64,000 nucleotides of DNA from Bacteroidetes bacterium 43-93 (GTDB lineage Bacteria > Bacteroidota > Bacteroidia > Chitinophagales > Chitinophagaceae): positions 248,001 through 312,000 of the forward strand of contig MKUO01000023.1 in assembly GCA_001897855.1 (NCBI GenBank). Direction: 5' to 3'. The notes beneath the pieces were generated by a model. It was given only the letters and a program-made list of their open reading frames with translations. It did no database searches and was not told the DNA's origin. This document shows, in pieces, positions 1-3,672 of this stretch (position 1 is its first letter; each line of letters opens with the position of its first letter). The position numbers and the translations under genes were made by a program.

Positions 1-215
1 GGGTCACCCCTTTTCCAAGTGAACCAATCATGATGCGCACTCTTATTGCCACCGGGGCCGATTTCAAATTTTATTTGCGATGCATTCGTTTGATTAATGC
101 AAATGATCACAAACCAACCACGTGGAGCATTTTTGCAATCTTGTAATTGGCAATATGCACCATTTCCTAGTGAACTAATCAGAATAATAAAAGCCAATGC
201 CAAACAAGCCTTCAT
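1..215 (-). CDS. Small secreted protein of unknown function (partial)
   Basis: An open frame runs leftward from an ATG at 213-215 and leaves the window after 71 codons, so the C-terminus is missing. The first ~22 residues form a clear signal peptide (Met-Lys-Ala-Cys, then a run of Leu/Ile/Phe/Ala, then Gly-Ala-Tyr-Cys-Gln). The visible mature part holds Cys residues, an NxT sequon-like NQTNAS and a GPGGNKSAHH stretch. I do not recognise a family. It lies in the A+T-rich segment that ends in the truncated comM and may belong to the same acquired DNA. A hairpin at 280-304 lies upstream of its start. Confidence 0.5.
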   Translation of the reverse strand, partial: MKACLALAFIILISSLGNGAYCQLQDCKNAPRGWFVIICINQTNASQIKFEIGPGGNKSAHHDWFTWKRGD

Positions 216-535
216 GACGCAATATTGAGGTAAATAAATTAAATATTTTCTGATGCAAACTAACAGTTTACATATAAATAAAAAAGAGTTTTTTACTCTT
301 TTTTAAGTGTAAAACATTTTTATATTATAAAGTGGTTCCGCATAAAACCGAAGTCATAGGCAACTTGGAGTGTAGCCCATCACAAAAACGTTTGTCTTAC
401 TAGTGTCTATAGAGGAATCGATAGAAGGCGCTTAGAACTCCTTCATCGATATAAGCTTGTGAATTGGTTGGAAAGTACCAGGAGGATAAAAACATACGAG
501 CATCTCGGACAAGTCCGGATTAATATAAAAGGAGC
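216..535. other. 320-base stretch without a convincing gene, rich in hairpins
   Basis: This gap holds a perfect A/T-rich hairpin at 280-304 and a long imperfect stem-loop at 417-450 (ATCGAT-A-GAAGG paired with CCTTC-ATCGAT, one bulged A, 11-base loop). A small CGGAC/GTCCG hairpin lies near 506-517, and the terminator-like hairpin of the following gene begins at 528. One frame on the plus strand stays open for about 65 codons and ends at about 562, but it has no credible start codon and no family I recognise. It may be a remnant of a broken gene or a structured RNA; I cannot tell which. Confidence 0.4.
280..304. terminator. A/T-rich terminator-like hairpin
   Basis: Left arm AAAAAAGAGT (280-289) pairs perfectly with ACTCTTTTTT (295-304) around a five-T loop, with T or A runs on both sides. 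It could act in either direction. It lies between the helix-turn-helix gene and the small secreted protein, both of which read leftward. Confidence 0.45.
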
Positions 536-554
536 CTATGAAATAAGCTCCTTT
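528..554 (-). terminator. Terminator of the helix-turn-helix gene
   Basis: AAAGGAGC (528-535) pairs with GCTCCTTT (547-554) around an 11-base loop. Read leftward, the stem is followed by TTATATT. The last codons and stop of the regulator gene lie inside the hairpin. Confidence 0.5.
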
Positions 555-970
555 AGTTTTTGATATTGGATGTTTTTAGGAATAGCTTTGTTTGCTTCCC
601 ATGAGGCTAAAGTTCTTTCTTCTACTCCGATATTTTTAGCCAGTTTTTTGATACTCAGGCCATGCTCAATTCGATACTTTTTAATTTTTCCTCCCAATGT
701 TTCGGTATTCATAGGGAATGGGTTATAACCTAAAAAATCAATTATTTGTGGATAATATTGAATTTGTGGAGCACTTCTTCCATTTTCCCATCCAGTAATA
801 GAATCCTCACATACATCCAATATCTTTGCTACATCGGCTTGCGGTAGTCGAAGTTGTAACCTTCGTTTTTTGAGTCGTTCACCTATAAATTGCGGATTAT
901 CAAGCTGTTTTAAGTATGGGGCTAAGGCTGAAATCTCTAAACCGCAGAAAGGGAACGCAGGTATGTCCAT
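536..970 (-). CDS. Double helix-turn-helix (XRE-type) transcriptional regulator
   Basis: The 144-residue product has two helix-turn-helix units. The first is at about residues 28-84, with the typical core QADVAKILDVCEDSITGWE followed by NGRSAPQ. The second, shorter one is at about 92-142, with the core LAKNIGVEERTLASWEANK. Small proteins of this kind are common in Bacteroidota, often alone beside accessory DNA. The only ATG near the 5' end (968-970) lies in comM-derived sequence, just past the point where comM homology begins at about 964. The native start may therefore have been lost, or the gene may have acquired its start codon at the junction. Its target is unknown; autoregulation or control of a mobile segment is possible but not shown. 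Confidence 0.7.
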   Translation of the reverse strand: MDIPAFPFCGLEISALAPYLKQLDNPQFIGERLKKRRLQLRLPQADVAKILDVCEDSITGWENGRSAPQIQYYPQIIDFLGYNPFPMNTETLGGKIKKYRIEHGLSIKKLAKNIGVEERTLASWEANKAIPKNIQYQKLKELIS

Positions 971-1449
971 GCGGTTATTTTAATCACCCGGAAAAAGAAT
1001 GTACCTGCAGCCCGGTAGTAGTACAACGTTACCTCAACAAAATCTCAGGTCCATTGCTTGATAGGATAGATCTGCATGTAGAGGTAACGCCCGTATCATT
1101 CAATGAGCTGTCATCCAAGCAAACATCAGAACCAAGCGAATCCGTTCGCGACAGGGTGATCAAAGCGAGAGAGATACAGGCGGAGCGATTTAAGGAGAGT
1201 ACAGGTGTTTACTGCAACGCACAGATAAGCAGTAAACAACTGAAAGAAATATGTGCTATCAATACCGTTGGGCAGACATTGCTGAAAACAGCAATGGATA
1301 GATTGAACCTGTCTGCCCGTGCGTATGATCGTATCCTGAAGGTATCTCGTACCATAGCAGATCTTGCCGCGAGTGAAGAAATAAGACCGGAACACCTGGC
1401 AGAAGCGATACAGTACCGCAGCCTTGATCGTGAAGGTTGGGGAGGATAA
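964..1449 (+). pseudogene. comM: Truncated comM/yifB (Mg-chelatase-like AAA ATPase), C-terminal third
   Basis: From the TGT at 964 the frame reads as the C-terminal part of ComM/YifB: CPCGYFNHPEKECTC, then the strongly conserved RYLNKISGPLLDRIDLHVEV, then the C-terminal LSARAYDRILKVSRTIADL and a typical YRSLDREGWGG end. Intact proteins are about 510 residues. Here about 161 remain, and the Walker A and B ATPase core is absent. In intact homologues the CPCGY motif is preceded by (A/S)MNP; here the codons before it encode Gly-Thr-Gln-Val, which do not fit, so homology ends sharply at 961-963. ComM is a hexameric helicase that helps integrate DNA taken up by transformation; this copy should be non-functional. 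An in-frame ATG at 916 might allow a short chimeric product. Confidence 0.8.
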
Positions 1450-1536: not shown

Positions 1537-2817
1537 ATGATGTTGCACGATAAACTCGAAAGGATCAATGTCCTTAAGGGCGAACTACGCCTAAAATTAT
1601 CTAATGAACAGTTGCACCAGGCTGAGAAAAAATTACTGGTAGACTTTCATTATAACTCGAACGGCTTTTTTGGAAGCTCACTAAGTTATAACGAAACACA
1701 ACTGGCTATTTCTTATGACACGGTTGTTGCCGGAAGGTCGGTAAGTGAATATACCAACCTGCAGCTTGGGAAAATAGCTTATCAGTCTGTTCTTGATGCT
1801 GCATTTAATAAAAGACACCAGTTAAGTGTCAATTTTATAGATGATATACATCGCATTTTATCTCCCCGTAGACATTCTTGTATAGCGCCTGTAAATAACA
1901 ATTTTGTAAGCGCAGTAGTATCGGGCGGTGATATCAACTATTTTGATAAAGGTTTTTCCCGCGATTTATATGATATCGTTGCCTGGTATAAAGATGAACA
2001 GACAAAAAATGAATTATGCGCGCCAGAGCTGGCGGCGCTTCTTCATAAAAAGATCATAGAAACAGATATTGAAGATGCACATAACGGAAAGCTTGCCCGT
2101 ATGCTGGTCAATTATGTTTTAATAAAGAGCGATCTTTTACCGATAGCTTTTAAACCCACGGAAACAATTAATTATTTAGATGCAACTGCAAGTGAGGATA
2201 TAACAGTCTTTAGCAATTACCTGGCAGATCAGCTATTGCTATCTTACCAGTCTTACCTTGATATTGGCAGTAACGAAAAGAAAGAAGAGACAAAAGACTG
2301 GAGAAAGACAATCGTTTCATTAAAACAGGAGCTGGATAAAAAGGACCAGATACGTTTTGCAAAAAATCACAGCATTATCAGGCGTATCTACAATGGCATT
2401 TTATTACCACTGATCTTCAGAATAAAGGATGAGATATCAGAATACGAAAATTTATTTCTGAGCAATGCTATATTCTTTAAAACAAGTAAAGAATCGTTCT
2501 ATACCCAATTACGCAACATTAGCCAAATAGATGCGCATATCTCCGGCAATATAGTTTTGTATACTGATGACATAGCGTTCGATTTTAGCTTTAATGACTT
2601 TAAGATCATAGAATACGTGAGTTTTGATATCCATTGCAAATTGAGTGTTTCTTTTCTGAAGCACAGCTACGAGCTTACATTCGAGGATAAAACCATTAGC
2701 AAATATTATCACCAGGTATTTTCAGAAGAAGACATCCAAATGCTAATTAATCATATAGGCAGCATGCTGCATTCTGAATTAAATAAATGCATGATAGCCA
2801 ATAAAAGGATAAACTAG
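1537..2817 (+). CDS. Fic-fold protein with degenerate active site (predicted pseudoenzyme)
   Basis: Residues 30-215 of this 426-residue protein follow the Fic (AMP-transferase) fold. They show the N-terminal inhibitory-helix region YNSNGFFGSSLSYNETQ (39-55), the helix FIDDIHRIL (100-108), and APELAALLHKKII (162-174) leading into the active-site loop. Where Fic enzymes have HPFx(D/E)GNGRxxR, this protein has TDIEDAHNGKLAR (176-188): the catalytic His is Thr, the motif has one extra residue, and the phosphate-binding Arg is Lys. The inhibitory Glu of the (S/T)xxxE(G/N) motif is Phe45. Transfer activity is therefore unlikely. Residues about 250-426 form a separate region, helical then strand-rich, that I cannot assign. 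Two ATG codons lie side by side at the start. The next gene begins 48 bases downstream on the same strand. The fold assignment is by eye and fairly secure; the role is unknown. Confidence 0.65.
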   Translation: MMLHDKLERINVLKGELRLKLSNEQLHQAEKKLLVDFHYNSNGFFGSSLSYNETQLAISYDTVVAGRSVSEYTNLQLGKIAYQSVLDAAFNKRHQLSVNFIDDIHRILSPRRHSCIAPVNNNFVSAVVSGGDINYFDKGFSRDLYDIVAWYKDEQTKNELCAPELAALLHKKIIETDIEDAHNGKLARMLVNYVLIKSDLLPIAFKPTETINYLDATASEDITVFSNYLADQLLLSYQSYLDIGSNEKKEETKDWRKTIVSLKQELDKKDQIRFAKNHSIIRRIYNGILLPLIFRIKDEISEYENLFLSNAIFFKTSKESFYTQLRNISQIDAHISGNIVLYTDDIAFDFSFNDFKIIEYVSFDIHCKLSVSFLKHSYELTFEDKTISKYYHQVFSEEDIQMLINHIGSMLHSELNKCMIANKRIN

Positions 2818-2865: not shown

Positions 2866-3672
2866 ATGAGACACTGCCTGATAGCATACAGTATTTTAAT
2901 GAGTGTATTCATAAACGCAAACGCACGTAGTTATCATGTACTTTTTAATACCGGAAGTTACCAATTGACGGATCAGGGCAAGCGATATATCGATTCGCTG
3001 GTGTATAATGACATAATACATCCGGGGTTAAAATTAGACCTCGTTGGTTATGCTGACTATGTAGGAGATAGCATGGGAAATCTCTTATTGTCGCAAAACC
3101 GCGCAAATGCGATAAGAGATTACTTGGTAGGGATGAATTTTAAGAAAGAAGATATTGAAGCCGTGCAGGGTAAGGGTGAAATACCTTCAGGAAAAGAAGA
3201 AGGTAGCGATGGTGTTCCCTTTAACCGAAGGGTGGATATCAGCATTCGGCTGCCCCGGCACAGAACAAAACCACTTGTAGCTGATGCATCTAAACTGAAA
3301 GTAAATGATATCATTCGGCTGAATATTCTATTCAAAGAAAGTTCGCATCAATACCTTGTAAAATCAATTCCTCTCTTAGATTCGTTTTACCTGTTAATGA
3401 AAAACAATCCAGGTTTAAGAGTAAGCATTGAAGGACACATTTGCTGCGGGAGCCATCTTAACGATGAGGGTATGGATATGGATACCCGGAAGATGGGTTT
3501 ATCTTTTAATAGAGCTAAGGCGGTCTACGACTATCTTGTAAAACGGGGTATTGATGCTGCCCGGATGAGCTACAAAGGAATGGGCTTTGCACATCCTCTG
3601 TATCCGGCGGAAGAAACACAGGAACAACGCGACCTGAACAAAAGAGTGGAAGTGCGAATTATTAGCAAATAA
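2866..3672 (+). CDS. Secreted protein with two tandem OmpA-like domains
   Basis: A signal peptide (residues 1-20, ending ANA) is followed by two OmpA C-terminal-like domains (about 23-130 and 150-268) and little else in 268 residues. OmpA domains bind the diaminopimelate of peptidoglycan through an Asp and an Arg. The first domain keeps both (GYAD at 61-64, Arg79). The second has GHICCG where GHTDxxG is usual, so Asp is replaced by Cys193, though Arg216 of NRA remains. Both repeats keep the C-terminal N(R/K)RV motif. There is no membrane barrel and no lipobox, so this looks like a soluble periplasmic peptidoglycan-associated protein. Its partner is not evident from the neighbours. Confidence 0.8.
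   Translation: MRHCLIAYSILMSVFINANARSYHVLFNTGSYQLTDQGKRYIDSLVYNDIIHPGLKLDLVGYADYVGDSMGNLLLSQNRANAIRDYLVGMNFKKEDIEAVQGKGEIPSGKEEGSDGVPFNRRVDISIRLPRHRTKPLVADASKLKVNDIIRLNILFKESSHQYLVKSIPLLDSFYLLMKNNPGLRVSIEGHICCGSHLNDEGMDMDTRKMGLSFNRAKAVYDYLVKRGIDAARMSYKGMGFAHPLYPAEETQEQRDLNKRVEVRIISK

What the first reader, a model, noticed from the sequence alone, without database searches (positions are those of the whole stretch)
1537..2817. Fic-fold protein that has lost both the catalytic and the inhibitory residue
The protein follows the Fic fold, but HPFx(D/E)GNGRxxR reads TDIEDAHNGKLAR. The catalytic His is Thr176, one residue is inserted, and the Arg of GNGR is Lys185. In the N-terminal inhibitory motif (S/T)xxxE(G/N) the Glu is Phe45 (SNGFFG). 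In known Fic enzymes the Glu restrains the activity that the His provides, so losing both is what one expects when a fold is kept for another job. The frame is intact, so this is not simple decay. The C-terminal ~175 residues match nothing I know and may carry the new function.
Basis: partly seen in the sequence, partly recalled or inferred. Interest (0 to 1): 0.62.

Follow-up and report, generated by a model that had tools for sequence, protein, structure and literature searches.

The report
Catalytically dead Fic protein still conserved
A bacterial gene encodes a protein with the shape of a Fic enzyme but without the parts a Fic enzyme needs to work; two species keep it nearly unchanged, so it probably does a non-enzymatic (or different) job, perhaps through a tail module that active relatives and an unrelated nuclease also carry.

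Summary
The 426-aa frame at 1537-2817 is real and has the Fic fold (3cuc Z 25.0; phmmer 3.3e-15). The motif loss is real but mis-registered: in gap-free alignments the catalytic His is Asp177, not Thr176, and nothing is inserted. The metal-binding Asp (Ala181), first motif Gly (His182), Arg (Lys185) and inhibitory Glu (Phe45) are lost too, with 15 residues beside the flap. It is not a lone decaying copy: a second species has the same degenerate motif at 94% identity, with dN/dS 0.061 (0.036-0.095). Yet 71 of 73 CTD-bearing Fic proteins examined keep the canonical motif: this is one lineage, on the longest branch of a 68-protein tree; the excess change is in the Fic half, not the C-terminal half. 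The C-terminal half is not new: it is a module of this Fic subfamily, also found behind YhcG (DUF1016) PD-(D/E)XK nucleases. Best reading: a functional pseudoenzyme, probably acting by binding through that module. Partner and function are unknown. New variant of a known kind.

The parts
1537..2817 (+). Fic pseudoenzyme gene, 426 aa (P0001)
   Evidence: orthologue L001:6001-7281, 94% identity
1543..2271 (+). Fic fold core, residues 3-245
   Evidence: AF2 10-residue mean pLDDT mostly 68-95, but 33-37 over 111-140; 3cuc_A Z 25.0 over model residues 8-252
1657..1677 (+). former inhibitory motif (S/T)xxxE(G/N), residues 41-47 SNGFFGS; Glu -> Phe45
   Evidence: sister species reads SNGIFRS; three amino-acid differences in residues 36-51
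1861..1953 (+). former flap region, residues 109-139; 15 residues missing before it and most conserved positions changed
   Evidence: 1 of 5 conserved columns kept
2062..2100 (+). former Fic signature loop, residues 176-188 TDIEDAHNGKLAR; catalytic His column = Asp177 (2065-2067)
   Evidence: identical in both species
2263..2814 (+). C-terminal module, residues 243-426 (profile match 221-424), shared with canonical Fic-CTD and YhcG-CTD proteins
   Evidence: dN/dS 0.030
2866..3672 (+). OmpA-family gene, 48 bp downstream on the same strand; it follows the pseudo-Fic gene in both carrier species
   Evidence: an operon is not shown
960..1449 (+). 3' part of comM (codons about 353-513), the upstream neighbour; its 5' part lies about 45 kb away across an inserted element

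Best explanation
It is a catalytically dead class II-type Fic protein (a Fic pseudoenzyme) kept as a working protein. Shown: the Fic fold remains; most residues of the motif that binds ATP and catalyses transfer are gone and the flap region is shortened and changed; the loss is confined to one lineage on a long branch; the product is under purifying selection now. Shown: the extra change is in the Fic half, while the C-terminal module evolved near the family's normal rate. Inferred: the protein works by binding, not by AMP transfer. The C-terminal module recognises the partner that its active Fic relatives and YhcG-type nucleases also recognise, and the dead Fic domain serves as scaffold, competitor or adaptor. 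The partner may belong to phage-defence or restriction machinery; this step is the weakest.
For: Motif loss in gap-free alignments. Fic fold: Z 25.0 to 3cuc_A, about 23 to FICD. Second species with the same TDIEDAHNGKLAR. dN/dS 0.061, bootstrap 0.036-0.095, within the span of five neighbouring genes (0.003-0.109). 24 changed residues against 75 expected. Tree: pair 100/100, stem 3.54 against median end branch 0.84. Part trees: Fic stem 2.16 against median end branch 0.29 (largest other end branch 0.95); CTD stem 1.73 against 1.34 (largest other 2.68). CTD behind Fic and behind YhcG (profile-profile probability 99.0, E 2.8e-18). 7 of 41 places of Fic relatives lie within 5 kb of an N6-methylase (PF02384) match. 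Two canonical relatives match the PADLOC candidate-defence Fic models PDC-S04 and, more weakly, SoFic; P0001 itself matches PDC-S04 at 9e-9. Precedents: BepC's FIC domain acts non-catalytically (PMC7842960, passages); [quoted passage not shown]
Against: No partner, target or expression evidence. Constraint rests on one species pair. The Fic-versus-CTD difference in constraint within that pair (0.094 against 0.030) is not significant (Fisher p 0.12), nor is the concentration of losses at active-site columns (4 of 15 kept in loop plus flap against 11 of 19 elsewhere in the Fic part, p 0.09). 34 of 41 places had no typed methylase match within 5 kb, and this gene itself sits among genes that look like housekeeping genes, so a link to restriction or defence is weak. 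The CTD fold was not predicted with confidence.
Confidence: 0.58

Rival explanations
1. The fold has been converted to a different enzyme. The old loop now reads D177-I-E179-D180-A-H182-N-G, an acidic/His cluster that could bind a metal or serve as a new active site.
For: The loop is identical in both species (0 nonsynonymous differences over residues 174-189) although it changed at 7 of 10 family-conserved columns. AvrB, which matches the model (Z 9.3), lacks the Fic motif and has another activity (that activity is recalled, not looked up).
Against: Only 1 synonymous difference fell in residues 174-189, so its conservation has little power. No substrate, no further homologues with the new loop among those examined, no structure of the pocket.
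Confidence: 0.2
2. Antitoxin or dominant-negative: the dead Fic domain pairs with an active Fic toxin and blocks it.
For: Heterologous Fic-Fic neutralisation is reported in Campylobacter fetus (PMC5651007, passages). Sofic acts as a dimer and dimerisation is needed for its toxicity (PMC12249575, abstract).
Against: The own genome has no PF02661 match at E <= 0.001, so the toxin would have to come from outside; the sister genome has one, in a 414-aa frame. The inhibitory Glu of class II Fic proteins is lost here too.
Confidence: 0.12
3. A decaying pseudogene caught before its frame breaks.
For: Very divergent; most active-site positions lost; its upstream neighbour comM is split by an inserted element.
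Against: dN/dS 0.061; 24 changes against at least 59 in every one of 2000 neutral runs, of which 6% had no stop; intact frame in two genomes.
Confidence: 0.04

Closest known systems
Canonical class II Fic proteins with this CTD (e.g. L033 in the same genus, L003, L005); solved relative 3cuc (BT_2513)
   Same: Fic fold, N-terminal helix in the place of the inhibitory helix, same C-terminal module, similar length; 3cuc covers the Fic part and only the start of the module
   Different: The proteins named keep HPFDDGNGR, the inhibitory Glu and the flap region; 25-28% identity
BepC of Bartonella (PMC7842960, passages)
   Same: FIC domain reported to act by protein binding, not catalysis
   Different: BepC keeps the His and differs from the motif only by D/E -> K; it is an injected host-directed effector with a BID domain
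AvrB (Fido fold without the Fic motif)
   Same: Fido fold lacking the residues of the Fic motif (PMC7842960 and PMC4454073, passages; Z 9.3)
   Different: Much weaker structural match; plant-directed effector (PMC4454073, passages); no CTD (recalled)
Doc/Fic clade D2 with Gln for His (PMC4454073, passages); Q-type Fic proteins L017, L028-L030 here
   Same: Catalytic His replaced
   Different: L017 and L028-L030 keep the rest of the motif ([PA]FxDGNKR) and an SSQIEGN inhibitory stretch, in frames of 246-354 aa
YhcG (DUF1016_N + PF06250) nucleases with the same C-terminal module (L097, L099, L101, L102, L250, L251)
   Same: Same C-terminal module (hhalign probability 99.0)
   Different: Different N-terminal enzyme (Pfam run on L097, L101 and L250)
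Sofic / SoFic
   Same: Fic protein with a C-terminal domain, tied to phage defence (PMC12249575, abstract and section 2.4; class II for SoFic in PMC3667792, passages)
   Different: Active AMPylase; the two canonical relatives tested match its PADLOC model over part of its length; homology of the two C-terminal domains was not tested

Membership tests
Fic/Fido fold | Fic core fold | tested here: met
   3cuc_A Z 25.0, 225 aligned, rmsd 2.9; FICD Z about 23
Pfam PF02661 (Fic) | score over the curated cut-off | tested here: not met
   no Pfam family at E <= 10; own genome 0 matches with PF02661
Fic AMP transferases | HxFx(D/E)GNGRxxR | tested here: not met
   D177 I E179 D A181 H182 N G K185 L A R188
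Fic AMP transferases | target-binding flap | tested here: inconclusive
   15-residue deletion before it; 1 of 5 conserved columns kept; model confidence 33-37 over 111-140
Fic AMP transferases | AMP transfer activity | not testable with these tools
   needs biochemistry
Class II Fic (self-inhibited) | (S/T)xxxE(G/N) N-terminal to the core | tested here: not met
   SNGFFG; Glu -> Phe45; sister SNGIFR
Fic-CTD subfamily | C-terminal module | tested here: met
   profile match to residues 221-424, E 6e-56 (the window and L001 segments are rows of the profile, so partly by construction); without the profile, P0001 aligns to the frames of L003-L006 over nearly its whole length (query 6-415, 6-415, 4-425, 21-415)
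Pseudoenzyme | catalytic residues lost, protein under purifying selection | tested here: met
   one species pair

The most novel reading that the evidence does not exclude
The former AMP-transfer loop has been rebuilt into a D-x-E-D-x-H cluster that supports a new chemistry or a new ligand site in a Fic fold, coupled to a C-terminal recognition module that different defence-associated enzymes (Fic, YhcG nuclease) share as an exchangeable aiming part.
Probability: 0.1. Interest if true: 0.75.

Novelty: new variant of a known kind. Interest (0 to 1): 0.42.

Why it matters
The non-catalytic or motif-less Fic-fold proteins that I met in the papers looked at (BepC, AvrB) are injected effectors. A bacterial Fic that lost most of its active site, yet is constrained and sits in an ordinary chromosomal neighbourhood, would separate what the fold and the C-terminal module do from what catalysis does. 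The module shared between Fic and YhcG proteins offers a handle on what both recognise.

Tried and rejected
Rejected: insertion in the motif and Thr176 as the His equivalent (gap-free alignments). Rejected: lone decaying copy. Rejected: genus-wide gene; 3 of 15 genus genomes match P0001, and tblastn of P0001 against the comM neighbourhoods of the 13 genus genomes other than the two carriers found nothing at E <= 10.

Led nowhere: viral contigs with A1 (82 stretches, none confirmed); phage and plasmid records (10 and 15 records, none covering 80% of the query); more CTD sequences from viral YhcG proteins (3 loci, no CTD match); CTD structure, pLDDT under 50 over 247-400 in the full model and mean 45 alone with 3 sequences, so no fold search was run on it; CTD profile against PDB (the start of the module in 3cuc, plus ribosomal L35/uL29 chains at 0.013 and weaker, which I take for chance).

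Considered and weakened: a special recoding of the 3' comM fragment. NG86 gave dS 2.1 against 0.62 for the 5' part, but at fourfold sites the contrast is modest (39 of 70 against 68 of 171, p 0.03); the 3' part exceeds the four other genes pooled (163 of 621, p 1e-6).

Literature searches on non-catalytic or motif-less Fic proteins, Fic in defence or restriction loci, and YhcG/DUF1016 showed no title or abstract start on a chromosomal class II-type Fic lacking most of the motif, or on a C-terminal module shared by Fic and YhcG. These were capped listings; the library lacks most subscription journals; of seven papers opened before and two after I read passages, one abstract and one section.

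Full report
What is there. The frame 1537-2817 (+) encodes 426 aa without a break. Pfam and NCBIfam give no family (E up to 10 and 1), but phmmer against PDB gives 3cuc (BT_2513) at 3.3e-15 and FICD at 3e-6. AlphaFold2 with seven sequences gives a mostly confident Fic core and a C-terminal half with pLDDT under 50 over residues 247-400. The model matches 3cuc_A with Z 25.0 over 225 residues (rmsd 2.9) and FICD with Z about 23.

The motif. Alignments of 12 and 68 proteins and the three phmmer alignments printed pass through the loop without a gap. The catalytic His column is Asp177, not Thr176, and there is no insertion. Of 10 loop columns conserved in at least 85% of 66 canonical relatives, 3 are kept (N183, G184, R188); of 5 flap-region columns 1; of 7 around the inhibitory motif 4 (not the Glu); of 19 others in the Fic part 11; of 3 in the CTD 2. 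Active-site columns are lost more often than other Fic columns, but not significantly (4 of 15 against 11 of 19 kept, p 0.09).

Is it alive? The sister MAG SZAS-24 (L001; its protein is identical to that of genus genome G153) has an orthologue with 24 differences and the same loop; F44, G46 and S48 in and beside the former inhibitory stretch differ. NG86 dN/dS is 0.061 (bootstrap 0.036-0.095) with dS 0.44; the neighbours have 0.003 (comM 3' part, dS near saturation), 0.109 (OmpA), 0.091 (photolyase), 0.013 (glycosyltransferase) and 0.025 (oxidoreductase-like gene); the last two gene names and photolyase are by eye. The Fic part has 0.094 and the C-terminal part 0.030; the difference is not significant (p 0.12). 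Random placement of the same 112 nucleotide differences changes 75 residues on average (minimum 59 in 2000 runs) and leaves the frame open in 6%.

How isolated is it? In the genus, 3 of 15 genomes match: own, G153, and G158, whose protein (L033) is canonical and 28% identical. Family: 31 of 147 genomes; order: 107 of 396 (matches to the Fic part included). Searches with the C-terminal profile found it in 31 of 295 genomes of the class and 13 of 395 of the phylum. These draws overlap. None of the 71 is a cut copy of another, but 4 are shorter than 400 aa and hold only part of the module. In a maximum-likelihood tree of 68 (length 400-520 aa), the pair is one clade (100/100), beside L033 with weak support (81/28), on a stem of 3.54 changes per site; the median end branch is 0.84. 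Separate FastTree trees put the excess in the Fic half (stem 2.16, median end branch 0.29, largest other end branch 0.95) and not in the C-terminal half (1.73 against 1.34, largest other 2.68).

The C-terminal module. It stands behind canonical Fic domains and behind DUF1016_N + YhcG_C nucleases. Profile-profile comparison of the two sets gives probability 99.0, E 2.8e-18 over 171 columns. No Pfam family covers it in the proteins scanned. I took 41 places of Fic relatives (the module was not checked in each) and compared them with PF02384 matches: 7 lie within 5 kb of one. In eight other neighbourhoods read by eye no restriction genes were recognised and most neighbours look like housekeeping genes. 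PADLOC: two canonical relatives match the candidate-defence model PDC-S04 (9e-35, 2e-38) and SoFic (6e-23, 3e-28); the window protein matches PDC-S04 at 9e-9. A defence role for the ancestor is plausible, not shown.

Neighbourhood. In the genus, comM and a photolyase gene lie together in 9 of 13 other neighbourhoods fetched (in two of them with other genes between), and none of the 13 holds a pseudo-Fic. In the two carriers the pseudo-Fic and an OmpA-family gene sit between them. The OmpA-family gene has an 88% orthologue only in the other carrier; the best matches in the other 13 genomes are 36-44% identical. The own genome has no PF02661 match, which counts against a Fic-Fic antitoxin role.

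Known kinds. BepC's FIC domain works without catalysis and AvrB lacks the residues for activity (PMC7842960, passages); degenerate Fic proteins are expected to have new functions (PMC3667792, passages); a clade with Gln for His is described (PMC4454073, passages). So the kind is known; a class II-type Fic in a chromosomal setting that lost most of its active site but is constrained and keeps a module shared with nucleases is, as far as my searches show, a new variant.

Verdict. Functional pseudoenzyme, most likely acting by binding through the C-terminal module (0.58). New chemistry (0.20), Fic-Fic antitoxin (0.12) and decay (0.04) are the rivals.

Noticed in passing
window 1-960 and own genome C23:202412-248958: comM is split: codons 1-352 lie at C23:202412-203467, the rest at window 960-1449, with about 45 kb between. 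A large serine recombinase gene (PF00239 + PF07508) sits at the left junction in the MNP|CPCG stretch; the insert carries a T4SS-type DNA transfer protein and a ThiF / Prok-E2 gene beside a JAB-like one (the JAB match is below the Pfam cut-off).
   Followed up: partly
window 964-1446: The 3' comM part is 98.8% identical to the sister's in protein but differs at 78 of 110 synonymous sites; genus comMs with similar or higher synonymous divergence are 82-89% identical in protein (11 of 13; one was not found and one was misparsed). Fourfold sites show a weaker contrast with the 5' part (p 0.03).
   Followed up: partly
window 2866-3672: OmpA-family gene 48 bp behind the pseudo-Fic gene, kept next to it in both carrier species; no close orthologue in the 13 other genus genomes searched.
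   Followed up: partly
L097, L099, L101, L102, L250, L251: YhcG-type PD-(D/E)XK nucleases carry the same C-terminal module as the Fic proteins: an exchangeable module without a Pfam name in the proteins scanned.
   Followed up: partly
L017, L028, L029, L030; also L044: Fic proteins with Gln in place of the catalytic His ([PA]FxDGNKR) but an SSQIEGN inhibitory stretch kept; L044 (461 aa) reads QPFDDVNKR.
   Followed up: no
L006, L051: Two Fic-CTD proteins read HPFDDSNGR (Gly -> Ser) and both lie just downstream of a MiaB/MtaB-like gene (name by eye).
   Followed up: no
L055 (G407): Two Fic-CTD genes in tandem next to an HsdM-type methylase gene.
   Followed up: no
L001:5444-5860: A small TonB_C-domain gene between comM and the pseudo-Fic in the sister is not present at that place in the window, where only 87 bases separate the two genes.
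   Followed up: no
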